From Quercus robur (taxonomy: Eukaryota; Streptophyta; Magnoliopsida; Fagales; Fagaceae), in the NCBI RefSeq assembly GCF_932294415.1, contig NC_065535.1:95992862-96056861 (forward strand): DNA of 64,000 nucleotides, given 5' to 3'. This document shows positions 19,464 to 49,400 of the stretch, one piece after another (position 1 is the stretch's first letter; each line of letters opens with the position of its first letter). The notes below the pieces were generated by a model. The model did not search any database. It was not told where the DNA came from and saw only the letters and a list, made by a program, of their open reading frames with translations. The position numbers and the translations under genes are program-made.

Positions 19464-21797
19464 GTACTGTCTTTCGCTCCTTTCACTTCATATTCACATA
19501 TCTCACTCGATGTAATTCCATTATATATATATATATATTTTGGTTTATATATCTCTGTCAAAACGCTGGTATTGTAGCATGTAATTGAAAGTTTTTTTTT
19601 TTGGTATTTTTGTTCAGTGCATGAAAGGCTTAGATTTGAAGGTTTTGGTTCTTTTTTGTTCTTTTTTGGTGGAGCAATTGAAAGTTATTTGAGTTTTTTA
19701 TTTTTTAATTTTTAAATTTTTTTTTGGTAGTTGTGAAATCAGAAAAAAATGGGTTTTTTTTTTTTTTTTTTTTTAAATTTGTTTTTGTTAGGTTGTGTTG
19801 AAGAAAGTATTAACTTGATGATAATGATGAGTTTAAGAAGTAAAAAAAAAAAAAATAAATATTGTGGTTTAGGTTGATAGTGTTTGAACAAGAGTAGTAG
19901 TAATTGTGACTAAAATTAGTGTTGGGTTTCAAAGGAGTGGTAAGTTGTGTAATTAATGCATGGAAGTGAGGGTGATACTAAATCTTAGAAGTATGTGTAG
20001 TTTTGAGTTTCTTTGGTAGATGTAGTTTGTGGGTTGAAAGTTCTTTTAAAAAGCTTGCAATTTTTGTGGATTGTACTAAGCCCACTAAGTGCACATGTTT
20101 AGTGGTTTACATATTGATTCTTGTTGAAAAGGGTATTGTTATCTTAAATTTAAAAAAGAAAAGGGTATTGTTATCTTAATGTTTGAAAACTAGTTAAATG
20201 ACACTAAAAATTTGTTTATACAGTCCTTACTTTTGATTGGATTATAAAAGTTTGTGTATTTTGGTGGGGATGGTTAATAAGAGTACTTTTGAGTATTGGA
20301 TTTGAATTGGTTTTTTTTTTATAAAAAATGATTACTATAATTGTTGCTCACCCATAGTAGGAAAAAAGTTATTGCATGATTGTGATGATAAATTTGGGAG
20401 TGATAAGGTAACAAGTAATACAATCTAGAAAGGGATGAAAAATGTTGACTTTATTGAATCATGGGAGGAATAAGATTGGGAAAGCTGGGAACGCATATAA
20501 ATTTTGTTGACAACAATTAAAGTTATTTATTTGAGCCACATTATTGGTAATGCTCACCAATTGATGTGTGGGATCTTTTATTTTTAAAAAAGAAAAAGAA
20601 AAATTGTGTTAGAAACCTTACGAACTTGCGCTTAGGTAGTTAGGCTGACTACATGATCCAAACCTATTGTTCTTTTGGCCTGCAAGAAACTTATTCAGAC
20701 CAGTTGAATTGCAACCTCATGTTTGTAGTGTACCGAGTTGTATGAAGTTTTGTGGGGCTCTGGAAAAAAAGTTACTAACTTAGTGTTGGACAAAGTGCGT
20801 TACTCTCCTTTATTAGTATCACTAGGAGGGAGGGAGCACAATTTCTATTATCTTGTTTAGTAGACAAAGGTTAAAAGGAAAAATGTGGTTGATGATATGC
20901 GCCATTTAAAAAACAATAATGTAGAGTTGAAAGAGTAAAAACTAAAGGCAGTTGAATGATAGTTTTGAAGGTTTATTCAAGTGTTTCTGTATTTTACATT
21001 TGACTTTGTGATTTTCTGTATAATATTCATAAGATTGTGTGTGCTCAGACTATTTGGATGCTATCTGGTAAAGTAGTACTTTCTATTGATTTTCACATGA
21101 ATCAAGTTAGTTTAAGGTGAGATGCTTGCTGAAGTGACATTGGTTCTTTTGAAATTTGAAGGAATCTGCATTTCTTTATTCTGGTGAAATCTATTTTCTT
21201 CCGTCTTTCACTTTGACTACATGAAAATTTTAAGCTACAGTTGTAGAGCAGACTGGTTTATTTTTATATTATTTTCTTCTTCTTTTTGTTTGCTTGCTAT
21301 GAATTGCTTTAAGTTGTGGAATATTAATAAAACAAATTGACTGAATGGGTGGAGGAAAATTAGGTCTCTGATTGAAGATTTTCTTATGTTTTTTTACACG
21401 GCTTGAAATTACTTGTTTCCTTGTTCTTTGAATATAATAATTCTAGTAATTGGTTGATGTTTACTTGTCTTGATCAGAGTAAAACTTTTCTCTATGGTGA
21501 CCCTGTAAATTTTTATCTCTCCTTTCTTGTTCCTTTATCACTCATGGTTTTCTGTTCCTACATTGTAGGCAATTTTGGTTGGATAATCAACTGTAGAGCC
21601 CAAACAAGACTGTTGAAGTATTGACATTTATGGTTTTGTTTCTTACAAATGAACACGGGCAAGATACTTCCTGAATGTGGTTGAGATGTTGCCAAACTAT
21701 CATACTGAGTCATTTAGTATTTACAGTTAATCTGAGGTCAATGAGCATCTTCTGGTATTACTTTGGAAGCTGTTTCTATTATTCTCTTTAATTCTAG
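19464..21797 (+). other. Probable 5'UTR intron of the 7TM gene
   Basis: The stretch between a leader donor (GT at 19464) and an acceptor (AG at 21796-21797) is T-rich on the plus strand, as plant introns are, and holds no credible ORF. Long leader introns near the start often raise expression in plants. The assignment is inferred and needs transcript evidence. Confidence 0.5.
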
Positions 21798-21836
21798 GAA
21801 GGAAACACATACGCTACAAGAGGATTTTTTGTATCC

Positions 21837-22001
21837 ATGCTGGCTGAGAGCATGCGTGGAATCTGTGCTTCGGGTAATGCCCCTGACGAGATTTTCTGCC
21901 GATGCATTCGGTGTGGTGACAGTTTGTCTAGTGGCTCTGTTAATTTTACTTGGTTTACTGTGCATCATTTACTCATTTTACTTCCGGTCTCGTATTCGTA
22001 G
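21837..22001 (+). other. Upstream ORF overlapping the 7TM start codon
   Basis: An ATG at 21837 opens a 54-codon frame that passes over the main ATG at 21877 in another frame and ends at 21999-22001. Its start context is weak (T at -3, C at +4), whereas the main ATG has G at -3, so leaky scanning could let ribosomes reach it. Whether these bases are in the mRNA depends on the acceptor at 21797. Confidence 0.5.
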
Positions 22002-23055
22002 TCAAGGTTTTAATCAACTCAGTTATTTTAGTGGTCCTTGGATCATCCGAATTACATTCATCTTGTTTGCAATCTGGTGGGGTTTTGGTGAGGTAATTCG
22101 GTTAAGTCTGTTGAGGCGTGCCATTAACTTGAAATGGCAGGAAACTGTTTGCAAATGCTATATTGTCTCAAATTTAGGGTTTGCAGAACCTTGCCTTTTC
22201 CTCACCCTTGTGTTTCTCCTTCGTGCGCCGTTGCAGAAGATGGAATTGGGAATTCTAAGCCGAAGTTGGAATGGGAAAACAGCCGGTTACATTATTCTTT
22301 ACTGCCTCCCAATGTTCCTTCTTCAGCTCTTTGTTATTTTAATTGGACCTCAGTTAAACAGGGAGAAGAGTTCCCAAAGGAAACTGCCTTCTTATTTTAC
22401 TGCTGCGACGGAAAGAGTTGATAATATTACCATTTGCACTTACCCCTTACTGAGTACTATATTTCTAGGGATTTTTGCCATGATCCTAACCGCCTACTTG
22501 TTTTGGCTTGGAAGTCGGATTTTGAAATTGGTCATCAATAAGGGTTTGCAGAAGAGAGTTTACATGTTGATATTCTCTGTTTCCAGTTTCCTACCATTAA
22601 GGGTTCTATTACTTGGTCTATCTGTTTTGGTTAAACCAGATCCAATTCTGTTTCAAGTTCTTGTTTTGTTGGCTTTTCTTGCCCTTTTTGGTTGTGCGGG
22701 GGTGTGTATATGCATGCTTGTGTACTACCCAGTTGCAGATTCTTTGGCCCTGGGAAATATACAGGACATAGAGGCTAGGAGAAGGGTTGACGATGATCAC
22801 AATGATACCATTTCTCTTATCGCTAACCAAAGCCATCTTGAAGAAGAAAGTGGTCGGATTAGTCCCAGTAGAAATTCTGATGCCTCAACAAAGCGTGGAT
22901 CGATTTCTTTTCGTACTTTTGAGAGGGATGGGACTTCAATGGGGACATTTGTGGAATTGAGTCTCTTCTCTCCTAGTCGAGATGCAACCCCACCAGGATC
23001 TCCTCCACTTCTTGGCTGGCCTATGCGCCCTCCTACACAAGTTCTTGGACCCTAA
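21877..23055 (+). CDS. Seven-transmembrane plant membrane protein, function unknown
   Basis: A single-exon coding region of 392 residues. I chose MPLTRFSADAFGVV as the start because related plant proteins, as I recall them, begin this way. The frame is open 38 codons further up, but that segment crosses the probable splice acceptor at 21797. Seven hydrophobic segments are visible, starting at DAFGVVTVCLVAL, WIIRITFILFAIW, GFAEPCLFLTLVF, AGYIILYCLPMFL, YPLLSTIFLGIFA, LIFSVSSFLPLRV and FQVLVLLAFLALF. The C-terminal 75 residues are hydrophilic and Ser/Pro-rich, with SPSRDATPPGSPP, a likely phosphorylated cytosolic tail. It looks like the unnamed plant family that includes At1g10660 and At5g62960, but this is from memory. 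A TOM1/THH1-like protein is the alternative. No enzymatic motif is seen. Confidence 0.85.
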   Translation: MPLTRFSADAFGVVTVCLVALLILLGLLCIIYSFYFRSRIRSQGFNQLSYFSGPWIIRITFILFAIWWGFGEVIRLSLLRRAINLKWQETVCKCYIVSNLGFAEPCLFLTLVFLLRAPLQKMELGILSRSWNGKTAGYIILYCLPMFLLQLFVILIGPQLNREKSSQRKLPSYFTAATERVDNITICTYPLLSTIFLGIFAMILTAYLFWLGSRILKLVINKGLQKRVYMLIFSVSSFLPLRVLLLGLSVLVKPDPILFQVLVLLAFLALFGCAGVCICMLVYYPVADSLALGNIQDIEARRRVDDDHNDTISLIANQSHLEEESGRISPSRNSDASTKRGSISFRTFERDGTSMGTFVELSLFSPSRDATPPGSPPLLGWPMRPPTQVLGP

Positions 23056-23368: not shown

Positions 23369-24233
23369 TTGATAATGATGGATCATCTTTTTGCTGTTGG
23401 TAAAGATATGTTCATGGGACAAAAAGTTGGTATTTCCAGCCTTACTGAATCTTTTCTTGGTGTTCAATAAATAAATTTCTGGGGATCTAGTAAGCTGGCT
23501 GGGCACAGCTTCGGTCATAATAGATCTCTAGGATGGGGATTGGGGAATGGTGAATAGTGGGAATTGGTCTTTCTCTCACTGGAAGAATTCCTCCTTTCCA
23601 CTGTACAAATTAATTAAAGCTTGTACAAAACGTTTTCTTGTCAGTGACTACTTTTAGGAAAACTGATTTATTTTCCGTACTTTTTCTTATAAATGACTAA
23701 GGTAATGTTTGGATAGCATTTGCGTTTTTGCTGCTGTGCGTTTTTTTTTTTTTTTTTTTTTCACGCGATTTTCCCACAAGCGGCTACTGTTCATGCAACA
23801 GTAGTCGCAACTTTTGACCGGTCTTATGTGAATAGTATATTTATGAACTGTTCATGAACTTATAAATTTTATTTTTTATTAATTTTTTCATTAAAAATGG
23901 GTCTCACGGTACTATTTACACATTTAAAAATTATTTTGCTACAGAAGTTCTATCCAAACAGACCCTAAATTTTTTGAAAATTTTTAGAGGGTGTAAAAAT
24001 GATTCTCTTTTTGTTCAAAGATTTTTTTTTCTAGGTGACATCCATTCCATTACCTCTTTCTTGCATTTCAGGTTTATTTACACCAAACAAGTCCCATGCT
24101 TATACTGGTCTTTCTTCAAACGAACCTGCTCTCCTCATACTTGTGTCATATGTGACCACAATAATGGGCCTACCATGACCAGGGTCGGCAATCACCGTAA
24201 ATTCAAATTCAATAAAGCAAACCACAATAACGT
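23369..24233. repeat. Duplicated segment, copy 1 (partner 56205-56905)
   Basis: From ATAATGATGGATCATC onward this runs closely parallel to 56205-56905 (shared CTTACTGAATCTTTTCTTGG, CTCACTGGAAGAATTC, TTCAAATTCAATAAAGC). The two differ by a MITE present only here (23701-23965) and by about 115 bases present only in the other copy (about 56694-56807). It carries no gene. The segment ends where the gypsy LTR begins, at 24234. Confidence 0.9.
23701..23965. mobile_element. PIF/Harbinger-like MITE, 265 bp
   Basis: The left end is GGTAATGTTTGGATAG and the right end read on the other strand is GGGTCTGTTTGGATAG. TAA lies on both sides (23698-23700, 23966-23968), the trinucleotide target duplication of PIF/Harbinger elements. 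The paralogous segment at about 56530 has the same flanking sequence without the element, a natural empty site. There is an internal T-run and no ORF. Confidence 0.88.
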
Positions 24234-24620
24234 TGTTAGGATTGAATTTATGGATTTATTGTGTAGCTGGATTCGAGGTCAGCTAGGCCTCCAGAATTGA
24301 TAGAAAGGAAAGGACAGAGAAAAGAAAAGGGAAAGCTTGCATTGAAAAATATACTTGCTTGATTACTCACTATACAACCCATTGGTCTCTTATACAACAC
24401 CAAAACAACTGTCAATGATCCATCAGTCCCGAACTAACTCTGACTGACTTGCATAGTCCTAACCAACACTTATGTACCACTCTCATATGGTCACTTAGGT
24501 ACGTGTACTATTAATACACTATCACAGCCCTTACACTATCCAGACTAATCATAGATTACTGCTACATCATAGTCTCTGCATCATAGCATTACATCATACC
24601 TTTGCATCACAGCAATGGGA
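24234..24620 (-). mobile_element. LTR 3' part of the founding Ty3/gypsy element
   Basis: This block shares the LTR sequence of the array units but continues past the unit junction to TGTTAGGATTG at 24234, the LTR terminus seen on the plus strand. The junction in the other units (GGGTTGCATTG) is replaced here by AAGCTTGCATTG, so this is the original LTR sequence. The AACGT before it is also present in the duplicate at about 56905, marking the old insertion point. The matching other end of the element has been lost. Confidence 0.75.
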
Positions 24621-27600
24621 AGAGGCACCACATGTTGATCCAACCTCTGCTTTAAACATGAAACATGGAAGGTGAAATGGAGTCTTGATTCAGGAGGTTG
24701 CATTGAAAAATACACATGCTTGATTAGCCACTATACAACTCATTGGTTTCTTATACAACACCAAAACAATAGTCAATGACCCATCAGTCTCTAACTAACT
24801 CTAACTGACTTGCACAGTCCTAACCAACTCTAATGTACCACTCTCATATGGACACTATCACAGCCTTTACACTATCCAGACTAGTCATAAACTACTACTG
24901 CATCATAGCCTCTGCATCATAGCCTCTGTATCACAAACTATTGCCATACAACCCATCATATTATACAACATACAAATTATGCCTACCCCCCCCCCCCTCC
25001 CCTCCCCTCCCCCCCAATTAAAACACCTTACCCACAAGGTGAGGAAATTGTTGCTGCAGTTGGTACAAATTCTTCCAATTAGCATTCTTAGTACCTTACC
25101 CTTGCCACTGAATTGAGACTTGAGTAACAATCCTATGCCCCAACTGATGGGAACTCTCTTGCAAAACAGCAATAGGTTCTGGTCTGATAATGCCCTCAGA
25201 ATCCACGGGGGTAAGGAAGGAAGAGGCATCACATATTGACCCAACGTTTACTTTAAACCTGAAACATGGAAGGTGGAAAGGAGTCTAGCTTCAGGGGGTT
25301 GCATTGAAAAATACAGTTGCTTGATGACCCACTATACAACTCATTGGTCTCTTATACAACACCAAAACAACTGTCAATAATCCATCAGTCTCTAACTAAC
25401 TCTAACTGACTTGCACAGTCCTAACCAACTCTAATGTACCACTCTCATATGGACACTTAGGCACGTATACTACTAACACACTATCACAACCATTACACTA
25501 TCCAAACTAGTCATAGGCTACTGTTGCATCAAAGCCTTTGCATCATAGCCTTTGCATCATAGCACTGCATCACAGCCTCAGCATCACAGCACTGCATCAC
25601 AGCATCTGCATCACAGACTATGGCCATACAACTCATCATATTATACAACATACAAACTATGCTTAACAATACCCCCCCCCCCCCAAAATTAAAACACCTG
25701 GCCCACAAGGTGAGGAAATTGTTGCTGCAGCTGGTACAAATTCTACCAAGAAGCATTCTCAGTACCTTCCCTTAGCCACTGAATTAAGAATTGAGTAATA
25801 GTCCTATGCCTGAACTGACGAGACCTCTCTTGCAAAATAGCAACAGGTTCTGGTCTAATAATGCCCTTAGAATCCATGGGGGTAAGGAAGGAAGGGGCAC
25901 CACATGTTGACCCAACCTTTGCTTTAAACATGAAACGCGAAAGGTGGAATGAAGTCTTGATTCAGGGGGTTGCATTTAAAAATACACTTGCTTGATTACC
26001 CACTATACAACTCATTGGTCTCGTATACAACACCAAAACAACTGCTAATGACCCATCAGTCTCTAACTAACTCTAACTGACTTGCATAGTCCTAACCAAC
26101 TCTAACGTACCACTCTTATATGGACACTTAGGAACGTATACTACTAACACATTATCACAACCTTTACACTATCCAAACTAGTCAAAGACTACTGCTGCAT
26201 CATAGCCTTTGCATCACAGCACTGCATCATTGCCTCTGCATCACAGCATTGCATCACAACCTCTGCATCATAGCCTCTGCATCACAGTCTCGGCATCAAA
26301 GACTACTTCTATACAACCCATCATATTATACAACATATAAACTATGCCTAACAATACCCCCCCCCCCCCAAAAAAAATTAAAACCCCTTGCCCATAAGGT
26401 GAGGAAATTGTTGTAATAGCTGGGACAAATTCTCCCAAGTAGCATTCTCAGTACCTTCCCCTTGCCACTGAATTAAGACTTAAGTAACAGTCCTATGCCC
26501 CAACTGATTTGAACTCTCTTACAAAATAGCAACAGGTTTTGGACAGATAATGCCCACAAAATCTACAGGGGGTAAGGAAGGAAGAGGCACCACAGGTTGA
26601 TCCAACATCTGGTTTAAACATGAAACATGGAAGGTGGAATGGAGTCTTAATTCAGGGGGTTGCATTGAAAAATACACTTGCTTGATTACCCACTATACAA
26701 CTCCTTGGTCTCTTATACAACACCAAAACAACTGTCAATGACCCATCAGTCTCTAACTAACTCTAACTGACTTATACAGTCCTAACCAATTCTAATGTAC
26801 CACTCTCATATGGACACTTAGACACGTATACTACTAACACAGTATTACAACCATTACACTATCCAGACAAGTCATAGGCTACTGCTGCTTTATAGCCTCT
26901 ACATCACAGCACTGCATCATAGCCTCTGCATCACAGCCTCTGCATCACAGAATTGCATCACAACACTGCATAACAGCCTCTGCATAATAGCCTCGGCGTC
27001 ACAGACTACTGCCATACAACCCATCATATTATACAACATACAAACTCTGCCTAACAATACCCCCCCTCCCCAATCAAAACAACTAGCCCATAAGGTGAGG
27101 AAATTATTGCTGCAGCTGGTTCAAATTCTCCAAAGTAGCATTCTCAGTACCTTCCCTTGCCACTGAATAGACTTGAGTAACAGTCCTATGCCTCAACTGA
27201 TGAGACCTCTCTTGCAAAACAACGATAGGTTCTGGTCTAATAATGCCCTTAGAATCCACAGAGGGAAGGAAGGAAGAGGCACCATATGTTAACCTAACCT
27301 CTGCTTTAAACATGAAACATGGAAGGTGGAATGGAGTCTTAATTCAAGGGGTTGCATTGAAAAATACACTTGCTTGATTACCCACTATACAACCCATTGG
27401 TCTCTTATAGAAAACCAACACAATTATCAATGACCCATCAGTCTCTAACTAATTCTAACTGACTCACACAGTCCTAACCAACTCTAATGTACAACTCTCA
27501 TATGGACACTTAGGCATGTATACTACTAACACACTATAACAACCTTTACACAATCTAGACTAGTCATAGACTACTGTTGTATCATAGCCTTTACATCATT

Positions 27601-27774
27601 ACACTGCATCATAATCTCTGCATCACAGCAATGCATCACAGCCTCTGCATCACAGTATTGCATCATTGCACTACATCACAGTCTCTTCATCACAGCATCT
27701 CACAGACTATGACCATACAACCCATCATATTATACAACATACAAAATATGCCTAACAATGCCCCCCCTCGCAAA

Positions 27775-28074
27775 TTAAAACACCTTGCCCACAAAGAGGG
27801 GAAATTGTTGCTGCAGCTGGTAAAAATTCACCCAAGTAGCATTCTCAGTACCTTTCCCTTGCCATAGAATTAAGACTTGAGTAACAGTCCTATGCCTCAA
27901 CTTGTGAGACCTCTCTTGCAAAACAGCAACTGGTTCTGGTCCGATAATGCCCTCAGATTCCACAGGGGGCAAGGAAGGAAGAGGCACCACATGTTGATCT
28001 AACCATTGCTTCAAACATGAAACATGGAAGGTGGAATGGGGTATTGCTTCAGGGGGTTGCATTGAGAAATACAC
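27775..28074 (-). pseudogene. Ty3/gypsy polyprotein C-terminal tail, best-preserved array copy
   Basis: A 99-codon open frame on the minus strand begins in the LTR remnant (MYFSMQPPE) and reads through the polyprotein tail: FHVSCLKQWL, VVPLPSLPP, GPEPVAVLQERSHKL, HRTVTQVLILWQ, ENATW and QQQFPLFVGKVF, ending at the polypurine tract. The PEPVAVLxER...TQVLxxWxGxxxExATW pattern is the chromodomain-like end of integrase in plant gypsy elements. Similar frames occur in most units, usually with stops or frameshifts. It lacks all catalytic domains and is not expected to act. Confidence 0.75.
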
Positions 28075-29940
28075 TTGCTTGATTACCCATTATACAACTC
28101 ATTGGTCTCTAATACAACACCAAAACAACTGTTAATGACCCATCAATCTCTAACTAACTCTAACTGACTTGCACAGTCCTAACCAACTCTAATGTACCAC
28201 TCTCATATGAACATTTAGGCACGTATACTACTAACACACTATCATAGCCATTACACTATCCAGACTAATCATAGGCTACTGCTGCATCATAGCTTCTGCA
28301 CTGCATCATAGCCTCTGCATCACCGCATTGCATCACAACCTCTGCATCACATCACTGCATCACAGCCTTTGCATCACAGCGCTACATCATAGCCTCTGCA
28401 TCACAATACTGCATCACTGCATTGCATCACAGCCTCTACATCACAGCATCTGCATCACAGACTACGACAATAAACCACATCATATTATACAACATACAAA
28501 CTACGCCTAACAATACTCTCCCTCCCCCAAATTAAAACACCTTGCCCACAAGGTGGGGAAATTGTTTTTGCAACTGGTACAAATTCACCCAAGTAACATT
28601 CTCTGTACATTCCCCTTGCCACAGAATTAAGACTGGAGTAACAGTCCTATGCCTCAACTAATGAGACCTCTCTTGTAAAACATCAACAGATTTTGGTCTG
28701 ATAATGCCCTCAGAATCCACAAGGGGCAAGGAAGGAAGAGGCACCACATGTTGATCCAACCTCTACTTTAATCATGAAACAAGGAAGGTGGAATGGAGTC
28801 TTGATTCAAGGGGTTGCATTGAAAAATAAACTTGCTTGATTACCCACTATACAACTCATTGGTCTCTTATACAACACCAAAACAACTGTCAATGACCCAT
28901 CAGTCTATAACTAACTTTAACTGACTTGCACAGTCATAACCAACTCTAATGTACCACTCTCATGTGGAAACTTAGGCACGTATACTACTAATACACTATC
29001 ATAGCCATTACACTATCTAGACTAGTCATAGGCTATTGTTGCATCATAGCTTCTGCATCACAACACTGCATCACAGCCTCTACATCACAGCACTGCATCA
29101 CTGCATTGCATCATAGCCTCTGCATCACAACATCTGCATCACAGACTACGGCCATACAACACATCACATTATACAACATACAAACTATGCCTAGCAAAAC
29201 CCCCCTCTAAATTAAAACACCTTGCCCCCAAGGAGAGGAAATTGATGCTGCAGCTGGTACAAATTCTCCCAAGTAGCATTCTCAGTACCTTCCCCATGCC
29301 ACTGAATTAAGACTTAAGTAACAGTCCTATGCCTCAACTGACGAGACCTCTCTCGAAAAACAGCAACAGGTTCTGGTCTGATAATGCCCTCAGAATCCAC
29401 GGGGGTAAGGAAGGAAGAGGAACCACAAGTTGACCCAACCTTTACTTTAAACATGGAACATGGAAGGTGGAATGAAGTCTTAATTCAGGGCGTTGCATTG
29501 AAAAATACACTTGCTTGATTACCCACTATACAACTCATTGGTCTCTTATACAACACCAAAACAACTGTCAATGACGCATCAGTCTCTAACTAACTCTAAT
29601 TGACTTGCACAGTCCTAACCGACTCTAATGTACAACTCTCATATGGACACATAGGCACGTATACTACTAACACACTATAACAGCCTTTACACTATCCAGA
29701 CAAGTCATAGACTATTGTTGCATCATAGCCTTTGCATCATTGCACTGCATCATAGTCTCTACATCACAGCACTGCATCATAGCCTTTGCATTACAGCCTC
29801 TTCATCATAGCACTACATCATAGCCTCGGCATCATAGCACTACATCACTACACTACATCACAACCTCTGCATCACAGACTACGGCCATACAACCCACCAT
29901 ATTATACAACATACAAACTATGCCTAACAATACCCCCTCC

Positions 29941-32829
29941 GGCAACTTAAAACACCTTGCCCACAAGAAGGGAAAATTGTTGCTGTAGCTGGTACAAATT
30001 CACCTAAGTAGCATTCTCTATACCTTCCCCTTGTCACAGAATTAAGACTTGAGTAACGGTCTTATGCCTCAACTTATGAGACCTCTCTTGCAAAACAGTA
30101 GTAGGTTCTGGTCTAACAATGCCCTCAGAATCCACAAGGGGGCAAGGAAGGAAGAGGCACCACATGTTGATCCAACCTCTGCTTTAAACACGAAACATGG
30201 AAGGATGAATGGAGTCTTGATTCAGGGGGTTGCATTGAAAAATACACATGCTTGATTACCCAATATACAACTCATTGGTCTCTTATACAACACCAGAACA
30301 ACTGTCAATGACCTATCAGTCTCTAATTAACTCTAATTGACTTGCACATTCCTAACCAACTCTAATGTACCACTCTCATGTGGACACTTAGGCACGTATA
30401 CTACTAACCCACTATTATAGTCTTTACACTATCTAGACTAGTCAAAGACTACTGCTGCATCATAGCCTCTGCATCACAGCACTGCATCATAGCTTCTGCA
30501 TCACAGCACTGCATCACAGCATTGCATCATAGCCTTTGTGTCACAGAACTGCATCATAGCCTCTGTATCAAAGCATTGCATCATAGCCTCTGCATCACAA
30601 CCTCTACATCACAGACTACAACCATACAACCCATCATATTATACAACATACAAACTATGCCTAACAATACTCCTCCCCCCCAAATTAAAACACGTTGCCT
30701 ACATTGTGAGGAAATTTTTCCTACAGTTGGTACAAATTCTCCCCAGTAGCATTCTCAGTACCTTCCCTTTACCACTGAATTAAGACTTGAGTAACAGTCC
30801 TATGCCCTAACTAATGAGACCTCTCTTGCAAAACAGTAACAGATTCTGGTCTGATAATGCCCTCAGAATCCACGGGGGTAAAGAAGGAAGAGGTACCACA
30901 TGTTGACCCAACCTCTGCTTTAAACATGGAAAATGGAAGGTGGAATGGAGTCTTGATTCAGGGGGTTGCATTGAAAAATACACTTGCTTGATTACCCACT
31001 ATACAACTTATTGGTTTCTTATACAACACCAAAACAATTATCAAGGACCCATTAGTCTCTAACTAACTCTAACTGACTCGCACAGTCCTAACCAACTCTA
31101 ATGTACAACTCTCATTTGGACACTTAGGCACATATACTACTAACACACTATCACAGCCTTTACACTATCGAGACTAGTCATAGATTACTGTTGCATCATA
31201 GCCTCTGCATCACTGCACTACATCATAGCCTATGCATCACAGCTTCTGCATCTCAGCATTGCATCATAGCCTCTGCATCACAGCACTGCATCATAGCCTC
31301 TTCATCACAGACTACGGTCATACAACCCATCATATTATACAACATACAAACTATGCCTAACAATAACCCCCCCCCCCCCCCCCCCCCCCGGCAACTTAAA
31401 ACACCTTGCCCACAAGAAAGGGAAATTGTTGCTGTAGCTGGTGCAAATTCACCCAAGTAGCATTCTCTATACCTTTCCCTTGTCACAGAATTAAGACTTG
31501 AGTAACGGTTTTATGCCTCAACTTATAAGACCTCTCTTGCAAAACAGTAGTAGGTTCTGGTCTGACAATGCCCTCAGAATCCACAAGGGGGCAAGGAAGG
31601 AAGAGGCACCACATGTTGATCCAACCTCTGCTTTAAACACGAAACATGGAAGGATGAATGGAGTCTTGATTCAGGGGGTTGCATTGAAAAATACACATGC
31701 TTGGTTACCCAATATATAACTCATTGGTCTCTTATACAACACCAGAACAACTGTCAATGACCTATCAGTCTCTAACTAACTCTAATTGACTTGCACATTC
31801 CTAACCAACTCTAATGTACCACTCTCATGTGGACACTTAGGCACGTATACTACTAACCCACTATTATAGCTTTTACACTATCTAGACTAGTCATAGACTA
31901 CTGCTGCATCATAGCCTCTGCATCACAGCACTGCATCATACCTTCTACATCATAGCTTCTGCATCACAGCACTGCATCACAGCATTGCATCATAGCCTTT
32001 GTGTCACAGAACTGCATCATAGCCTCTGTATCAAAGCACTGCATCATAGCCTTTGCATCACAGCCTCTACATCATAGACTACGGCCATACAACCCATCAT
32101 ATTATACAACATACAAACTATGCCTAACAATACTCCTCCCCCCCAAATTAAAACACGTTGCCCACATTGTGAGGAAATTTTTCCTGCAGTTGGTACAAAT
32201 TCTCCCCAGTAGCATTCTCAGTACCTTCCCTTTACCACTGAATTAAGACTTGAGTAACAGTCCTATGCCTTAACTAATGAGACCTCTCTTGCAAAACAGC
32301 AACAGATTCTGGTCTGATAATGCCCTTGGAATCCACGGGGGTAAGGAAGGAAGAGGTACCACATGTTGACCCAACCTCTGCTTTAAACATGGAAAATGGA
32401 AGGTGGAATGGAGTCTTGATTCAGGGGGTTGCATTGAAAAATACACTTACTTGATTACCCACTATACAACTTATTGGTTTCTTATACAACACCAAAACAA
32501 TTATCAAGGACCCATTAGTCTCTAACTAACTCTAACTGACTCGCACAGCCCTAACCAACTCTAATGTACAACTCTCATTTGGACACTTAGGCACATATAC
32601 TACTAACACACTATCACAGCCTTTACACTATCGAGACTAGTCATAGATTACTGTTGCATCATAGCTTCTGCATCACTGCACTACATCATAGCTATGCATC
32701 ACAGCTTCTGCATCTCAGCATTGCACCATAGCCTCTGCATCATAGCACTGCATCATAGCCTCTGCATCACAGATTACGGCCATACAACCCATCATATTAT
32801 ACAACACACAAACTCTACCTAACAATACT
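29941..32829 (-). repeat. Recent dimer duplication inside the array
   Basis: Two successive 1.43-kb blocks (29941-31366 and 31390-32829) are nearly identical, each containing two array units. They share variants found nowhere else, for example GGCAACTTAAAACACC at the start, GTGTCACAGAACTGC in the minisatellite, and TATCGAGACTAGTC later. The blocks are separated by the longest C-run of the array (23 C). Confidence 0.9.
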
Positions 32830-35530
32830 CCCCCCTAAATAAAAACCCCTTGCCCATAAGGTGAGGAAATTGTTCCTGCAGCTGGTACAAATTCTTTTAA
32901 GTAGCATTCTCCGTACCTTCCCCTTGCCACAGAATTGAGACTAGAGTAACAGTCCTATGCCTCATCTTATGAGACCTCACTTGCAAAACGGCAACAGGTT
33001 CTGGTCTGATAATGCTCTCAGAATCCATAGAGGGCAAGGAAGGAAGGAAGAGGCACCACATGTTGATCCAACCTCTACTTTAAACATGAATCATAGAAGG
33101 TGGAATGGAGTCTTGTTTCAGGGGGTATCATTGAAAAATACATATGCTTGAGTACCTATTATATAACTCATTGGTCTCTTATACAACACCAAAACAACAG
33201 TCAATGACCCATCAATCTCTAACTGACTTGCATAGTCCTAACCAATTCTGATGTACCACTTTCATATGGACACTTAGGCACGTATACTACTAACACACTA
33301 TCACATCCTCTGCACTGTGCAGACTAGTCATAGACTACTACTGCATCATCGCCTCTACATCACAGCACTGCATCATAACCTCTACATCACAACACTGCAT
33401 CACAACCTCTGCATCATAGCACTGCAACACAGCCTCTGCATCACAGAACTACATCACAACATTGCATCACAGCCTCTGCATTACAGCCTCTGCAACACAG
33501 ATTACTGCCATACAATCCATCATATTATACAACGTATAAACTCTGCATAACAATACCCCCCCCCCCCCAATTAAAACATCTAGACCACAAGGTGAGGAAA
33601 TTATTGCTGCAACTGGTACAAATTCTCCAGAGTAGCATTCTCAGTACCATCCCTTGCCACTGAATTAAGACTTGAGTAACAGTCCTATGGCTCAAATGAT
33701 GAGACCTCTCTAGCTAAACAATAACAGGTTCTGGTCTGATAATGCCCTCAGAATCCACAGGGGGAAGGAAGAAAGAGGCATTGCATGTTGACCTAATCCT
33801 TGTTTTAAACATGAAACATGGAAGGTGGAATGAAGTCTTGATTTAATGGGTTGCATTGAAAAATACACTTGCTTGATTACCCACTATACAACTAATTGGT
33901 CTCTTATACAACACCAAAACAATTATCAATAACCCATCAGTCTCTAACAAACTCTAACTGACTCGCACAGTCCTAACTAACTTTAATGTACAACTCTCAC
34001 ATGGACACTTAGGTACGTATACTACTTACACACTATCACAGCCTTTACACTATCCAGACTAGTCATAGACTACTGCATCATAGCCTCTGCATCATAGCCT
34101 CTACATCACAGCACTGCATCATAGCCAGTTCATCACAGCACTGCATCACAACCTCTGCATCAAAGCCTCTACATCACAGACTACTTTCATACAACCAATC
34201 ATATTATACAACATACAACTACACCTAACAATACCCCCCCCCCCCTAATTAAAACACCTTGCCCACAAGGTGAGGAAATTGTTGTTGCAGCTGGTACAAA
34301 TTCTCCCAAGTAGCATTCTCAGTTCCTTCCCCTTGCCACTGAATTAAGACTTGAGTAATGGTCCTATGCCTTAACTGATGAGACCTCTCTTGCAAAACAG
34401 CAACAGGTTCTGGACAGATAATACCCTTAGAGTCCATAAGGGGGTAAGGAAGGAAGAGGCACCACATGTTGACCCAACATCTACTTTAAACATGAAACAT
34501 GGAAGGTGGAATGGAGTAATGATTCAGGGGGTTGCATTGAAAAATACCCTTGCTTGATTACCTACTATACAACTCGTTGGTCTCTTATACAACACCAAAA
34601 CAACTGTCAATGACCCATTAGTATCTAACTAACTCTAACTGACTTGCACAGTCCTAACCAACTCTAATGTACCACTCTCGTTTTGACACTTAGGCACGTA
34701 TACTACTAACACACTATCACAACCTTTACATTATCCAGACTAGTCATAGACTACTACTGCATCGTAGCCTCTACATCACAGCACTGTATCATAGCCTCTG
34801 CATCAGAGCACTGCATCACAGCGTCTGCATTAGAGCACTACAGCACAGCCTCTTCATCGCAACCTCTGCATCACAGCCTTTGCTTCACAGACTACTGCCA
34901 TAGAACCCATTATATTATACAACATACAAACTATGCCTAACAATACCCCCTCCAATTAAAACACCTTATGCACAAGGGGAGGAAATTGTTGCTGTAGTTG
35001 GTACAAATTCACAGTACCTTCCCCTGCAACTGAATTAGGACTTGTGTAATAGCCCTATGCCTCAACTGATGAGACCTCTCTTGCAAAACAACAATAGGTT
35101 TTGGTCTAATAATGCCCTTAGAATCCACGGGGGTAAGGAAGGAAGAGGCACCACATGTTGACCCAACCTCTGCTTTAAACATGAAATATGGAAGGTGGAA
35201 TGGAGTCTTGATTCTGGGGGTTGCATTGAAAAATACACTTGCTTGATTACCCACTATACAACTCATTGGTCTTTTATACAATTCCAAAACAACTGTCAAT
35301 GACCCATCAGTCTCTAACTAACTCTAACTGACTTGCACAGTCCTAACCAACTCTAATGTACCACTCTCATATGGACACTTAGGCATGTATACTATTAACA
35401 CACTATCATAGCCTTTACACTATCCAGACTAGTCGTAGACTACTGCTGCATCATAGCCTCTACATCACAGTACTGTAACATAGCATCTGCATCACAGTAC
35501 TACATCACAACACTGCATCACAGCCTCTGC

Positions 35531-38500
35531 ACTTATTGTTGCTTCATTGGACACATACCTGATAAATGCTATAAGCTCCATGGTTACCCTCCTGGTTACA
35601 AGCCAAAAGGAGGTAACAAGGCCATGGCAAATCAAGTTGCTTCAATGCAAACCACAGGAAGTTGTGGATTTGATCCAAATGTGCATTTTGGTTTACTGTC
35701 TAGTGGTGTGCATTCTGGTTTTTTGCCTGGAGTAGCTTTGCAAGGTGCTGGTGTTCAATCAGATTTGGCTTCACAGAACCATGTTGGTCACTTTGGTGGA
35801 GGTTCTTTTGTGAAAGTTAGTACACAGTTATCATTGGCATAGGCTCAATGTAAGCAATTTCTGAATTTTCTGAAGTGTCATATGGCTACTGGATCAGACA
35901 ATGATGCTCAGACTGGTCACCAAGCTGCTTCTGTTATGACTTCTTACCCTTCCATTCCACATACTTTACCTTCCACATCATCCTCTCCTTCTACTTCATT
36001 AAAATTTTTAGGTAATTCCTTCTGGATTCCACCTAATCTTTCCCATTCTATCTTTGCTGCTCAAGTAGTTGATAGACAAGCATATAAATCCAATACTTGG
36101 ATCATTGATATAGGAGCAACAGACCACATGGTTCATTCTGTTGCTCAATTGACTTCAATTACCTCAATAGTCCATACTTTTTTCTATTTGCCTAATGGGG
36201 AACAAGTCTTAGTTACACACATAGGCACAATGCATATTTCTTTCACTTTAATTTCAACTGATGTCTTGTGTGTGCCCTCTTTTACATTCAACTTGATTTC
36301 TATTAGCAAACTCACAAAATCACTTTGCTGTTGCCTCATTTTCCTTGATGATTGTTGTTTTATTTAGGACCTTGCTCAATGGAGCACGATTGGTCTGGGT
36401 AAAGCACACAATGACCTATTTCTACTGCAAGATTCAGGTTGTAGATCTTTTGCATTTGTACTTGCTGCTGCTGTTACTTCTGGTTCTTCATCAGATTTAT
36501 GGCATAGTAGATTAGGACACCCTTCTCATTCTAAACTTCAATTGTTGAAGCAACTTGTACATGATGTTAATATCAATAAAACTACTTCTTGTTGTGATAT
36601 TTGTCATTTTTCAAAATAGAATAAACTTCCTTTAACAGCTAGCACTCATGTTTCAACTCATCCTTTTGATTTACTTCATTGTGATCTTTGGGGTCCATTT
36701 GCTACAAAGACTGTTGATGGTTTTAGATTTTTCTTAACAATTGTGGATGATTTTACTAGATCCACTTGGGTATATTTGCTCAAACATAAGTCTAAAACAC
36801 AAGTGTATCTTCCACAATTTGTTTCTATGGTGTCTACTCAGTTTAATTGCAAAGTCAAAACTATAAGGAGTGATAATGGAACTGAATTCTATCTTAAGGA
36901 TTTCTTTCAATCAAATGGAATTTTGCATCAGTTGACTTGTGTTGAAACCCCTAAACAAAATGCTGTTGTTGAGAGAAAACACTAACACATTCTCAATGTT
37001 GCAAGAGCTTTAAGGTTCCAATCACAACTTCCTTTATGTTTTTGGGGAGATTGCATTCTAACTATTGTTTACCTTATTAATAGACTTCCTTCCAAGTCTT
37101 TAGGTAACAAAAGTCCTTATGAGCTTCTTTTTAAATCATCACCATCTTATAATCATCTCAAATGTTTTGGTTGCTTATGTTTCATTTCAACTTTACCTCA
37201 TAATAGAGACAAATTTGCACCTAGAGCTAGGAAGTGTGTGTTTTTAGGCTATCCCCAAGGCATTAAGGGCTATAAGGTACTTGATCTCACTTCCAATTCT
37301 GTTCACATATCCAGAAACATTATTTTCTATGAGCATATTTTCCCTAATGCTCTTTCCTCACAACCTTCCCTTTCTTATTTAGATGATTTCATTTTTCCTC
37401 ATTGTATTTCAGAATCATCTCAATCTGTTGATACTATTCATCTTCCTTCCTCTATTTCAATTGACATTCCTTCTACCACTGATGTGGATCCTAGCACCCT
37501 ACCTGTTGCAACATTTGATGCAGCACTTGATGCACCTAGCACCCTACCTGTTGCATCATCTAGTGCAGCAGCTGATTCTGCAGAACCTGACCTTATTGGC
37601 ATTCCTTCATTGACTTCTAATCCTAGTTCCTCCCCTACTGTTTCACCACTTACCTCACCTTCAACTTCCAATCCTACTCGCAGAAGGTCCACTAGATCAC
37701 ATAAACCACCTCCTTACCTATCTTAGTATGCTTGCAAGTCTGTCAGTACTAAGCCCCACTCTGGTCTGCCGTATGATGTTTCAGCCTATTTGGACTATTC
37801 TCACCTTGGGCCTACCTTTAAGTCTTTTGTTATGGCAGTTAATTCCACTCCTTTAGAACCTGCCTCTTTCCATCAGGTAGTGCAATATCCTGAATGGAGG
37901 GCTGCCATGGATAAGGAAATAGAGGCTTTAGAGGTCACTGACACTTGGAGTTTGGTGCCTTTACCTCCTGGTAAGAGCCCTATAGGTTGTAAATGGGTTT
38001 ATAGGGTTAAATATCTCCCTGATGGCTCTATTGAAAGATATAAGGCTAGACTGGTTGCTAAGGGTTTCACACAAAAGTTTGGCTTGGACTATTCTGCGAC
38101 TTTTTCACTAGTGGCCAAGTCTGTGTTAGTCAGGATTGTACTCACTTTGGCTGCTGTGAAAGGGTGGTTTCTTCACCAAATGGATGTTAACAATGCATTC
38201 TTGCATGGTGATTTGAATGAAGATGTGTACATGTGTCTGCCACCTGGTTTTCATAGCAAGGGGGCCAATGTTGTATGCAAATTAAACAAAAGTCTTTATG
38301 GTCTTAAACAGGCTTCAAGACAATGGTTTGACAAATTTTCCAAAACCATTCTTCAAATGGGATTTGTTCAATCCAAATCTGATTACTCACTGTTTACTCA
38401 CAATTAAGGGACTTCTTTTACAGTGCTTTTGGTGTATGTTGATGACATTTTACTTACTAGAAACAATCCTAATTGTGTCAACAGCTTGAAGAAGTTACTA

Positions 38501-39592
38501 GATGATAGAATTGGCTTAAAAGACCTTGGTTCTTTGAGGTATTTTTTAGGTCTTGAGGTGGCAAGGACTGATGCAGGCATCAGCTTGACACAAAGAGAGT
38601 ATGCACTTGAAATTTTGAAGGATACTGTTTTTCTTGGATCAAAGCCAGTTAAATTTCCTATGGAGCAGAATCTAAGGCTTTCTAAATTTGAAGGGAAGTT
38701 GTTAGCAGACCCTGGAATGTACAGGAGGTTAATTGGGAGACTACTATACTTAACTTTGACACGGCCTGACATTACTTATGCTGTGCATAGGTTGAGTTAG
38801 TTTGTCTCAAAACCTAGAGAGCCTCACTTACTTGCTGCTCACAGAATCCTTCAGTATATTAAAGGATCCCCGGGTAAGGGACTTTTCTTCTCAAGCACCT
38901 ATGATTTACATATTAAGTCCTTCTGCGATGCTAATTGGGCTGGATGCCCTAATACAAGGAGGTCACTGACAGGATATGTAGTGTATTTAGGAGAGTGTTT
39001 GATAGCATGGAGATCAAAGAAACAAGGGGTAGTTTCAAGATCATTGGCAGAGGCTGAGAATAGGGCAATGGCTAGTGTAGCATGTGAAATGATCTGGGTA
39101 CTTCAATTACTTAAGGATTTAAAAATTGAGCACCCCAAACCAACTATGCTCTTCTGTGATAATCAAGCAGCCTTGTATATAGCTGCTAATCCAGTCTTCC
39201 ATGAGAGGACTAAACATACTGAGGTAGACTGTCATTTGGTTCGAGACAAAATTCTGGAGGGAATGATTAAAACTTTTCATGTGAATTCAAATGCTCAGGT
39301 AGTTGATGTGTTTACCAAAGCTTTAGGCTTCAATTCTTTCACAAGATTGACACAGAAGTTGGGTTTGCAAGATATTTTCATGCCAAAGCAGTTGCCAAAG
39401 GAGTTACGGATTGAAACTCATCTTCAAGTCCATGATCTTTCAGTTCAGGACTTGAGGGGGAGTATTAAAATTGAAGAAGGTCAACATGGTGGAACAAGTA
39501 GAGTCAAGAAGAAAGAAGGAAAAACTAAAGGGGAGTCCACATGTCAGAGAAACAAGAAGAAGCAAATAGAAGTGACAGATGTCAAATTGTAA
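35531..39592 (+). pseudogene. copia-1 gag-pol reading frame with seven nonsense codons
   Basis: A single frame stays open from 35531 to 39592 with no frameshift. Domains in order: gag zinc knuckle; protease TWIIDIGATDHM, where the usual D-S-G is D-I-G; integrase zinc site LWHSRLGHPSH...CCDIC, then DLLHCDLWGP, IRSDNGTEF and the glutamate in VVERKH; reverse transcriptase [24 protein letters not shown] and YVDDI; RNase [10 protein letters not shown] and [13 protein letters not shown]. Stops are at 35840 (TAG), 36365 (TAG), 36617 (TAG), 36983 (TAA), 37724 (TAG), 38405 (TAA) and 38798 (TAG). Each is at a place where related proteins have Gln. The frame also runs past the polypurine tract into the LTR. 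It is inactive as it stands. Confidence 0.92.
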
Positions 39593-39769
39593 TTGGATGT
39601 ATTGATAATTAGTTAGTTAGTTATTTTTGGAGGGAAAATTTGTTAGCCTCTGTTAGCCCCTGTTTTCGTGTATATAAAGCATACGTGATAATTATTTTGT
39701 AATTGCTTTCATTCTTTCAATTAAAGAGTAAATTCAGTTTTCAATCTCTCTTTTACTCTGTTTCTAATA
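39463..39769 (+). mobile_element. 3' LTR of copia-1
   Basis: It starts TATTA immediately after the polypurine tract and ends TAATA, a variant of the usual TGTTA...TAACA ends. A TATA motif (GTATATAAAG) lies at about 39670, followed by AT-rich sequence with a possible polyadenylation region. There is no second LTR for comparison. Confidence 0.8.
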
Positions 39770-46287: not shown

Positions 46288-46392
46288 TTGACCGTTGACT
46301 TCAGGTTGACCGTTAACTTTGACTGACCGGTTGACCGTTGACTTTGACTGACCGGTTGACCGTTGACCGTTGACTTTTGACCAGAGTTGACT
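46288..46392 (+). promoter_or_regulatory. Cluster of 12 W-box cores in the copia-2 leader
   Basis: TTGAC followed by C or T starts at 46288, 46295, 46306, 46319, 46331, 46338, 46344, 46356, 46363, 46370, 46377 and 46387. TTGAC[CT] is the core bound by WRKY factors of the plant defence response. The cores lie in a degenerate minisatellite with period about 7 and all point the same way. They are downstream of the LTR promoter, so any role would be as an internal enhancer. Activity is inferred. Confidence 0.7.
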
Positions 46393-46473
46393 TTTTGCAG
46401 TCCGGGTCCTCCTTACCCAGTTTTTCGCGTAGATTTCATTTTTGCGCTCCATTTTTGCATATTTTGCTTCAAA

Positions 46474-49400
46474 ATGCAGAATAAGGACAAGTCTTCTACC
46501 TCTTGCAACAATCGTCGCCGACAATCCAACAAACGTTTTGGCCATAATATTGAGACTTGCTACCAACGTAACAAATCAGCTGTTTCCATTTCTGCTGCTA
46601 CTGTTGCTAACACTAAGAGTGTCCCACCTATGGCTCCCGTCTCTGCAAAGTCTCAGTCTTCTGGATCCACTTTCACCATTTCTAGAGATGACCTTATAAA
46701 TATCATCGCCAATGTCATTCGTACGGTTGGTAATGCATCTTATTCCTCTTCTCTCTCAGTTTTATCTGGTATGTCTCCTACCTCTTGGCTTATGGATTCT
46801 GCTTGTTGCAATCACATGACACCTCACTCGTCCTTATTTTCTGACCTTAAACCTACACCGCACCCTCTTAATATTTGCACAGCAAATGGTTCCACAATGT
46901 CTGGTCATAATATAGGTTCCGTTGTGACCTCCAATCTCTCGGTTCCTGGAGTCTTTAATATTCCTGACCTTTCTTATAATTTATTTTCTGTTGGACAATT
47001 AGCTGAGTTGGGTTATCGCATTATCTTTGATTATTCTGGGTGTATTGTGCAGGATCCGAGGACGGGACAGGAGCTTGGGACTGGTCCCAGAGTTGGGCGT
47101 ATGTTTCCCGTGGACAACCTTCGTCTTCCACTTGTTGCTCCTGTTTCTGTTGCTGCAGCTGCTACAGCTTCTTCAATTCCTTCCCTTGCACTTTGGCATG
47201 CTCGACTTGGTCATGCATCCTCCTCTCGGGTACAACAATTAGCTTCTAGAGGTTTGTTAGGTTCAGTGTCTACAAAAAATTTTGATTGTGTTTCGTGCCA
47301 ATTAGGAAAACAACCAGCTTTACCCTTCAATACTAGTGAATCAATATCCACTGATATCTTTGACCTTATTCATTCTGATGTTTGGGGCCCTTCTTCTGTC
47401 TCTAGTATTGGTGGGTCTCGATATTTTGTTGTCTTTGTTGATGATTACTCTCGCTATAGCTGGATTTTTAATATGAAACATCGTTCTGAATTATTGCAAG
47501 TATATTCTAATTTTGCAAAAATGGTTGAAACTCAATTTTCCAAACGCATCAAAATTTTTCGATCTGATAATGCTCTTGAATATACTCAATATGCTTTCCA
47601 AGCTGTTTTGCATTCCTATGGCACTGTTCATCAACTAACTTGTCCAGGTACCTCTCAGCAAAATGGTAGAGCCGAATGGAAACTTCGTCATATTCTTGAC
47701 ACTGTTCGTGCTTTTCTTCTCTCTGCCAAAGTTCCTGCTCCTTTTTGGGGCGAAGCTGCTTTTCATGCTGTTCATACTATTAATCGCATTCCGAGTCCGG
47801 TTATCCAAAATCAAACTCCATATGAGCGCCTTTTTGGGTCATCTCCAGACTATCACCGCCTTCGCTCCTTTGGTTCTGCTTGTTTCGTTCTTCTTCAGCC
47901 ACATGAGCATAACAAACTTGAGCCTCGGTCAAGGTTTTGTTGTTTTCTTGGCTATGGCGAAACTCAAAAGGGGTATCGATGTTATGACCCTGTCTTTCAT
48001 CGTCTTCGTGTTTCCCGCAATGTTGTCTTTTGGGAACATCGCCTCTTTGTCGAGCTCTCTCAATTTCGTGCCTCCCTATCTTCCTCCTCTGTTTTAGATC
48101 TTTTTCCAGATGAGGCACATATTCCTCCTGTAGTTGCTCCTGATTCTCTTGTAGACTTCTCTGTCCAACCACCAGATATCACTGATCCCTTTCCTAGTTC
48201 ACCCTTTAATGAACAGGTGGAAGATGAACAGGTTGAAGACGAGCTACCCAACCCCAACCCTGAGCTTGGGTCCCCTGCTCCTGCTCCGCCTGAAGATCTT
48301 GCACAAGACATTCCACCTCGTCACTCAACTCGAGTAAGATCTATTCCTACACATTTACTTGACTATCATTGTTACACTGCTCTTGCTACATTACATGAGC
48401 CTCACACCTATCGTGAGGCTTCCACTGACCCTTTATGGCAGATTGCAATGAAAGAGGAACTTGATGCATTATCTAAAAACCATACTTGGGATTTGGTGAC
48501 ACTCCCTCCTGGGAAATCTGTGGTTGGTTGTAAGTGGATCTACAAGATTAAGACTCGCTCTGATGGGTCCATTGAGCGCTACAAAGCTCGTCTTGTTGCA
48601 AAAGGTTTTACACAGGAGTATGGGATTGATTATGAAGAGACCTTTGCTCCGGTTGCTCGTATCTTATCTGTCCGTGCCCTCTTAGCTGTTGCTGCTGCCC
48701 GTAAATGGGATCTTTTTCAGATGGATGTCAAAAATGCATTCCTTAATGGGGATTTACTTGAAGAAGTTTATATGCAACCTCCTCCTGGTCTCTCTGTTGA
48801 CTCAAATAAGGTTTGTTACCTTCGACATGCACTTTATGGCCTTAAACAAGCTCCACGAGCTTGGTTTGCCAAATTCAGCTCTACCATCTCTCATTTGGGT
48901 TACATGGCCAGTCATTATGATTCTGCCTTATTTCTTCGTCGCACTGACAAAGGCACTATTTTACTTCTCCTGTATGTGGATGATATGATCATAACTGGTG
49001 ATGACCTCAGTGGCATTCAAGAACTCAAGAATTTTCTTAGTCAGTAATTTGAGATGAAAGATCTTGGACATTTCAGCTACTTCTTGGGTCTTGAAATCAC
49101 TCATTCTACTGATGGACTTTATCTTACTCAAGCTAAATATGCTTCTGAACTCTTGTCTCGAGCTGGACTCACTGATAGCAAGACTGTTGACACTCCAGTT
49201 GAGCTTAATGCGCATCTGACTCCCTCAGGGGGGAAACCATTGTCTAATCCCTCTCTTTACAGACGATTGGTTGGCAGCCTAGTTTATCTCACAGTTACTC
49301 GTCCAGACATCTCCTATGCTGTTCATCAGGTGAGCCAGTATCTGTCTGCTCCACGATCAACTCACTATGCTGCTGTTCTGCGCATTCTTCGATACTTGAA

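What the first reader, a model, noticed from the sequence alone, without database searches (positions are those of the whole stretch)
24234..35530. Satellite-like array built from a Ty3/gypsy 3' end
Sixteen tandem units each join the end of a gypsy polyprotein, its polypurine tract and the first part of its LTR. The junction lies where LTR sequence CAATGCAA meets pol sequence GCAACCCCC, i.e. at a shared GCAA, while the left edge keeps the uninterrupted LTR. This suggests one microhomology-mediated event in a single inserted element that then expanded by unequal exchange. Such arrays are candidate starting points for new satellite DNA.
Basis: partly seen in the sequence, partly recalled or inferred. 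Interest (0 to 1): 0.75.

Follow-up and report, generated by a model that had tools for sequence, protein, structure and literature searches.

The report
Single-locus tandem array from retrotransposon end
In a plant genome, the tail end of one old jumping gene was rejoined once and then multiplied about sixteen times in a row at this one spot, a well-preserved example of how a satellite repeat can start and then stall.

Summary
The array is real. Sixteen head-to-tail units on the minus strand join an LTR to a gypsy pol end at one fixed position. The left edge is the true 3' LTR terminus, supported by six relatives and a paralogous empty site. In the 785.7-Mb assembly the junction occurs 16 times, all in this array: a local birth, not an established satellite.

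Corrections. (1) The shared GCAA is not supported: uninterrupted pol elsewhere reads GATTT[A/G/T]CC, so LTR and pol share at most ACC. (2) The right end is not an element boundary; it is cut inside the LTR and fused to a 5'-truncated copia at TGCA. (3) Units are almost equidistant (mean 11.4%), with one clear later two-unit duplication (97.7%): a burst, then few exchanges.

Best explanation: a deletion from the 5' LTR to the pol end inside one chromovirus, then unequal exchange between the two LTR copies. This mirrors the model for maize CRM1TR/CRM4TR, but the monomer carries coding sequence and the array is old and unhomogenised. CHG-biased decay suggests past methylation; no coding selection is seen. 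Whether a duplication or a tandem element came first cannot be told, because the right edge is lost.

The parts
24229..24233 (.). AACGT, presumed one copy of the 5-bp target-site duplication; last host bases before the element
   Evidence: Paralogous empty site (56730-57000) matches through AACGT and then differs; the partner copy is lost. A relative, solo LTR on C37, has a 5-bp duplication ATCAT (read).
24234..24336 (-). Intact last 103 nt of the 3' LTR, ending CCTAACA
   Evidence: Aligns end to end with LTR ends of six relatives; length checked.
24337..24697 (-). Left-edge unit u00 (361 bp): pol-tail start joined to LTR; chromodomain, PPT and LTR start deleted
   Evidence: Unit alignment.
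24698..35220 (-). Fifteen units u01-u15 (601-757 bp): pol tail, PPT, LTR up to CAATGCAA
   Evidence: Junction search and unit alignment.
35221..35531 (-). Right-edge unit u16: LTR part only, cut inside the LTR minisatellite
   Evidence: Unit alignment and blastn.
27775..28062 (-). The only intact junction-ATG frame (95 aa: integrase tail plus chromodomain), in u05
   Evidence: 1 of 16 frames intact; coordinates checked; Pfam Chromo E = 0.013 for this unit, 3.8e-5 for u14.
29957..31262 (-). Late two-unit duplication, first copy (core)
   Evidence: 97.7% identical to 31406-32724 (1275 identities, 30 mismatches, 15 gaps).
31406..32724 (-). Late two-unit duplication, second copy (core)
35528..35531 (.). 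TGCA shared by gypsy LTR and copia gag at the right breakpoint
   Evidence: 4 of 5 copia relatives read have TGCA here, 1 has TACA.
35528..39768 (+). Copia element, 5'-truncated at the gag zinc knuckle; 3' end approximate
   Evidence: CTYCCFIGHIPDKC reading, RVT_2 E = 2.3e-46, flank homology from 39769 on.

Best explanation
This is a fossil tandem array born once, in place, from a single chromovirus (Ty3/gypsy) insertion. Step 1 (edge shown): an element inserted at 24234 on the minus strand. Step 2 (junction shown, path inferred): a deletion of about 4.3 kb (size taken from a C4 relative) joined the 5' LTR after GCAACC to the end of pol at TTTACC, with 2-3 shared bases, leaving LTR~pol tail-PPT-LTR: two direct repeats with a short spacer. 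Step 3 (inferred): misaligned exchange between these repeats multiplied the unit in a short burst to about 14 copies, while the outer 3' LTR end stayed single. Step 4 (shown): one later duplication of two units. Step 5 (pattern shown, cause inferred): decay with strong CHG C-to-T bias, so the array was probably methylated and silent. Step 6 (shown): a junction at TGCA fused the right end to a copia element; the 5' parts of both are gone. It has no evident function. The confidence is for the whole path; 'one founding junction, expanded in place' alone I put at about 0.9.
For: 16 of 16 junctions at one position and nowhere else in 785.7 Mb. Intact LTR end only at the left edge with a paralogous empty site. 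Parental states read elsewhere: pol GATTT[A/T/G]CC and LTR CAATGCAACCTTT. Near-equidistant units, 15.8% internal tree length, turnover model 1-5 events, late duplication. CHG changes 15.1% (pol) and 17.7% (LTR) against CHH 5.2% and 4.8%. TGCA at the copia junction. Published model of the same type for CRM1TR/CRM4TR (PMC3648361 section 15).
Against: The right edge is lost, so a founding deletion in a 5' LTR cannot be told from a duplication or from a tandem-element precursor. Shared bases are few (2-3). The near-star pattern does not itself show exchange; other burst mechanisms fit. The closest full-length relatives are only 70-75% identical over the unit, so the parent's exact bases are inferred. 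The family does form LTR-PBS chains, which favours a rival.
Confidence: 0.5

Rival explanations
1. Tandem-element route: the insertion was an LTR-internal-LTR-internal-LTR chain; a deletion from the middle LTR to the next pol end made the first two units, then exchange expanded them.
For: On C4 three LTRs that follow pol and PPT are themselves followed by a PBS. Such tandem elements are common in plants, gypsy above all (PMC11899658 abstract and Discussion).
Against: Needs one more step. The three C4 places are 91-94% alike along their length, so may be copies of one event, and the second internal region matches the first for only 86 nt after the PBS.
Confidence: 0.2
2. In-place tandem duplication: the segment from pol end to mid-LTR was duplicated once at short homology inside the 3' end, then expanded.
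For: Gives the same junction and the same intact left edge.
Against: The proposed GCAA homology is absent. No pol upstream of the unit remains at the right edge, though the truncation there could have removed it.
Confidence: 0.15
3. Template switching or circle-based amplification during retrotransposition: the array, or its first few units, was made before or at integration.
For: Units are about as different from each other (10.1%) as from the nearest solo LTR (8.8%), which falls among them in the tree, so the burst is about as old as the insertion. PMC7004042 cites abnormal strand transfer as a hypothesis for 3' UTR repeats of Ogre (passages).
Against: Repeated switches at one identical site are unlikely; no other locus carries the junction; tree support for the solo LTR's place is only 72.
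Confidence: 0.13
4. Assembly artefact.
For: Tandem arrays are prone to misassembly; no reads were available.
Against: Units differ by 11.4% on average and in minisatellite length, so reads should place them. Only the 97.7% duplication could easily be miscounted.
Confidence: 0.02

Closest known systems
CRM1TR and CRM4TR of maize (PMC3648361; passages and section 15 seen)
   Same: Tandem repeats from part of an LTR plus neighbouring internal sequence of a gypsy element, with one constant deletion junction; proposed origin is illegitimate recombination followed by repair or exchange between the repeats; few loci.
   Different: There the monomer is LTR plus downstream UTR; here it is pol tail, PPT and LTR, the other side of the LTR, with coding sequence. 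Those monomers are reported 95-98% similar to a parent (CRM4TR) and pericentromeric; here units differ by 11.4% and the array lies 2.1 Mb from a contig end.
Tandem LTR-retrotransposons, LTR-int-LTR-int (PMC11899658; abstract and Discussion seen)
   Same: Gypsy-derived tandem structure in plants; relatives of this family form such chains on C4.
   Different: Those repeat whole internal regions between complete LTRs; here only about 300 bp of pol and a partial LTR repeat.
Ogre-derived satellites of Lathyrus sativus (PMC7004042; passages seen) and PisTR-A of pea (as told in PMC9659126; passages seen)
   Same: Retrotransposon-derived tandem repeats as seeds of satellites.
   Different: Those exist as short 3' UTR arrays in many element copies and expand mainly in primary constrictions; this junction exists at one locus and spans coding sequence and LTR.

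Membership tests
Chromovirus (Ty3/gypsy with chromodomain) | Chromodomain at the pol C-terminus (in 94% of chromoviruses and in no other LTR group of PMC6317226, passages) | tested here: met
   Pfam Chromo E = 3.8e-5, 24.0 bits (u14), just under the 25.1 cut-off; 0.013 for u05; four further pieces none. The preceding SH3_Tf2-1 end is weak: 0.037-0.12 in four of five unit pieces, none in the fifth.
Chromovirus (Ty3/gypsy with chromodomain) | LTR with TG...CA inverted ends, PPT before the LTR, PBS after the 5' LTR | tested here: met
   TGTTAGG/CCTAACA and G-rich PPT in the array; PBS in relatives L001, L003, L004. The array itself has no PBS left.
Chromovirus (Ty3/gypsy with chromodomain) | 5-bp target-site duplication | tested here: inconclusive
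   Only the left copy AACGT remains; a relative has ATCAT on both sides.
Reina clade of chromoviruses | RT/INT phylogeny | not tested
   Suspected from the recalled C-terminal motif only.
Satellite DNA | Head-to-tail tandem repeats | tested here: met
   16 junctions.
Satellite DNA | Many copies, in long arrays or at several loci | tested here: not met
   16 of 16 junctions at one locus in 785.7 Mb.
Satellite DNA | Homogenised units | tested here: not met
   Mean distance 11.4%, no position effect, one late duplication.
CRM1TR/CRM4TR-like retrotransposon-derived tandem repeat | Monomer spans LTR and internal sequence with one constant deletion-type junction | tested here: met
   on the opposite side of the LTR.
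CRM1TR/CRM4TR-like retrotransposon-derived tandem repeat | Centromeric or pericentromeric location | tested here: inconclusive
   2.1 Mb from the end of a 98.2-Mb contig; centromere position unknown; kinase and IRX15-like genes in the window.
Tandem LTR-retrotransposon (LTR-int-LTR-int) | Whole internal regions between shared LTRs | tested here: not met
   Only about 300 bp of pol per unit.

The most novel reading that the evidence does not exclude
Satellite birth here was a single fast amplification close in time to the insertion (circle- or reverse-transcription-based, or a brief run of exchanges), in gene-containing DNA away from any shown centromere; after silencing the array froze, so the units still record a common birth. 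A satellite seed can thus arise and stall without continuing unequal exchange. A weaker possibility: each junction made a promoter-ATG-chromodomain mini-gene; its decay argues against it having been kept.
Probability: 0.3. Interest if true: 0.55.

Novelty: new member of a known kind. Interest (0 to 1): 0.42.

Why it matters
How satellites start is usually hidden by homogenisation. This one locus keeps the insertion edge, the founding junction and unhomogenised units, and the same genome holds the uninterrupted parental states and a paralogous empty site, so birth, expansion and arrest can be ordered and tested in related haplotypes. It also shows that the pol-PPT-LTR end of a chromovirus, coding sequence included, can seed such an array. 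It is an instructive case, not a new principle.

Tried and rejected
GCAA microhomology: rejected. Established satellite at many loci: rejected by the junction search; alone would not have sufficed, as its list (52 matches, 39 of 83 candidates scored) did not show the array's own units. A-B dimer structure through the array: some shared variants alternate at u08-u14, but the odd-even test is not significant (P = 0.16 with all of u01-u15; 0.80 and 0.79 without the late copies). Selected chromodomain frame at each junction: 1 of 16 intact; substitutions at codon positions 1/2/3 are 9.2/6.1/7.7%; N/S per site 0.78 with 30 stop-making changes; pol diverges more than the LTR (13.0 against 10.3%). 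Array inserted inside the copia: no copia match on the left flank. Relatives of the pol tail in viral contigs and genome contigs: none confirmed. PDB sequences: only chance-level hits. Genome-wide count of ordinary LTRs: not completed.

Papers: PMC3648361 passages and section 15; PMC11899658 abstract and Discussion; PMC7004042, PMC9659126 and PMC6317226 passages; all others search listings only. Searches that could have shown a published pol-PPT-LTR array; nothing in the listings and passages I saw describes one, but I opened only those five papers, and the library is open-access only.
Full report
1. The observation. The region 24234-35531 holds head-to-tail units on the minus strand. A fuzzy search finds the LTR|pol junction 16 times, always at the same place in the unit, plus one uninterrupted LTR copy at the left edge. 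In element orientation each unit reads pol tail, stop, G-rich PPT, LTR up to CAATGCAA, next pol tail. Fifteen units are 601-757 bp; the left-edge unit u00 is 361 bp because an internal deletion removed its chromodomain, PPT and LTR start. Length varies mostly in a 13/14-bp minisatellite inside the LTR.

2. What the unit is. A piece of u14 matches the Pfam Chromo domain at 3.8e-5 (24.0 bits, cut-off 25.1) and the open frame of u05 at 0.013; four other pieces gave no Chromo match. The residues before it weakly match the end of the Tf2-1-like SH3 domain (0.037 to 0.12 in four of five unit pieces). With the PPT and the TGTTAGG/CCTAACA ends this is the 3' end of a chromovirus. Reina is my recalled guess from the motif, not tested.

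3. Left edge. The last 103 nt align end to end with the LTR ends of six genome relatives; three of these (L001, L003, L004) continue into a tRNA-type PBS. A paralogous copy of the left flank (24111-24233 against 56785-56908, 90%) matches through AACGT and then differs, so 24233/24234 is a precise insertion edge. The closest relative, a solo LTR on C37, has ATCAT on both sides.

4. Right edge. The array stops inside the LTR minisatellite and runs into the gag zinc knuckle of a copia element on the plus strand. Of nine copia relatives fetched besides the window's own copy, five could be read at this point: four have TGCA there and one TACA. Gypsy and copia thus share TGCA at the breakpoint. The right flank of the copia is a receptor-kinase gene copy (84% to 61935-62774); the kinase-side part of that gene has no match beside the array. 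A deletion or joining event therefore removed the 5' side of both elements and probably part of the gene.

5. Whole genome. The window is C2:95,992,862-96,056,861 of a 785.7-Mb, 42-contig assembly, 2.1 Mb from the end of a 98.2-Mb contig. The 25-nt junction with up to 3 mismatches occurs 16 times, all in the array, with 0 for the control.

6. The junction. Uninterrupted pol reads GATTT[A/T/G]CC in 5 of 5 loci found with a pattern that starts downstream of it and in 8 of 8 places, whose pattern favours that reading and whose control gave 1 match. LTRs read CAATGCAACCTTT in 6 of 6 relatives; the array's own left edge has CAATGCAAGCTTT, probably one later change; two distant copies differ more. 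Shared bases are ACC in 3 and CC in 1 of the 4 relatives tested; 5.9% of random breakpoint pairs share 3 or more. GCAA is not shared in any copy read.

7. History. The mean p-distance outside PPT and minisatellite is 11.4% and does not rise with separation (r = -0.07, permutation P = 0.71). Internal branches make 15.8% of the tree. One block is clearly later: 29957-31262 against 31406-32724, 97.7%. A simple block-turnover simulation reproduces the observed spread (CV 0.169, 2 close pairs, r = 0.07) for about 1-5 events since a burst. For 10 events CV and close pairs are still inside the 95% range but r is outside; for 20 or more CV is outside too. The simulation is crude: it treats pairs as independent and moves blocks of one or two units. 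In the LTR 3' part units differ from each other by 10.1%, from the solo LTR by 8.8% and from L001-L005 by 10.5-11.9%; the solo LTR falls among the units with support 72. The burst is thus about as old as the insertion, as far as this short stretch tells.

8. Decay. C-to-T changes are 15.1% (pol) and 17.7% (LTR) at CHG sites, 5.2% and 4.8% at CHH, 23.3% (7 of 30) and 12.1% (7 of 58) at CG; T-to-C is 2.2% and 1.3%. Such a bias is expected of CHG-methylated plant repeats (established knowledge), and it inflates all distances.

9. Mechanism. The simplest route is one deletion inside a single element from its 5' LTR to the end of pol, which leaves two direct LTR copies with a short spacer, then misaligned exchange. 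It mirrors the model proposed for CRM1TR/CRM4TR (PMC3648361 section 15). The family also has LTR-PBS chains on C4, so a chain-plus-deletion route is a real rival. The lost right edge prevents a choice.

10. Coding or function. Each of 16 junctions has an ATG in frame with the pol tail; TATA-like words lie 58 nt (13 of 16 units) and 38 nt (11 of 16) upstream. Only 1 of 16 frames is intact, there is no third-position excess, and pol has diverged more than the LTR. I see no retained function.

11. Verdict. It is a new member of the known class of retrotransposon-derived tandem repeats, unusual for its pol-PPT-LTR monomer, single locus and frozen state.

Noticed in passing
39770-62760: Cluster of S-domain (B-lectin, S-locus glycoprotein, PAN, kinase) receptor-kinase gene copies on the minus strand, several truncated; one is interrupted by the copia next to the array.
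   Followed up: partly
G000:C4:60492108-60555212: Relatives of the gypsy family where LTRs that follow pol and PPT are themselves followed by a PBS, i.e. chain-like LTR-internal-LTR-internal structures, in three places.
   Followed up: partly
23372-24233 and 56206-56936: A repeat of unknown kind, 83-90% alike in pieces, present at both places; the gypsy element inserted in one copy.
   Followed up: partly
31367-31391: The PPT of one unit has grown to a run of about 20 or more C on the plus strand, near an edge of the late two-unit duplication.
   Followed up: no
46387-49923: A second copia element with long open frames (RVT_2, integrase, GAG-pre-integrase).
   Followed up: no
21763-23055: Intact 430-aa frame of a multi-spanning membrane protein with no Pfam hit, 1.2 kb left of the array and facing it; the array's LTRs point towards its 3' end.
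   Followed up: no
53300-53525: Several short overlapping minisatellites (29-40 bp units) in a row.
   Followed up: no
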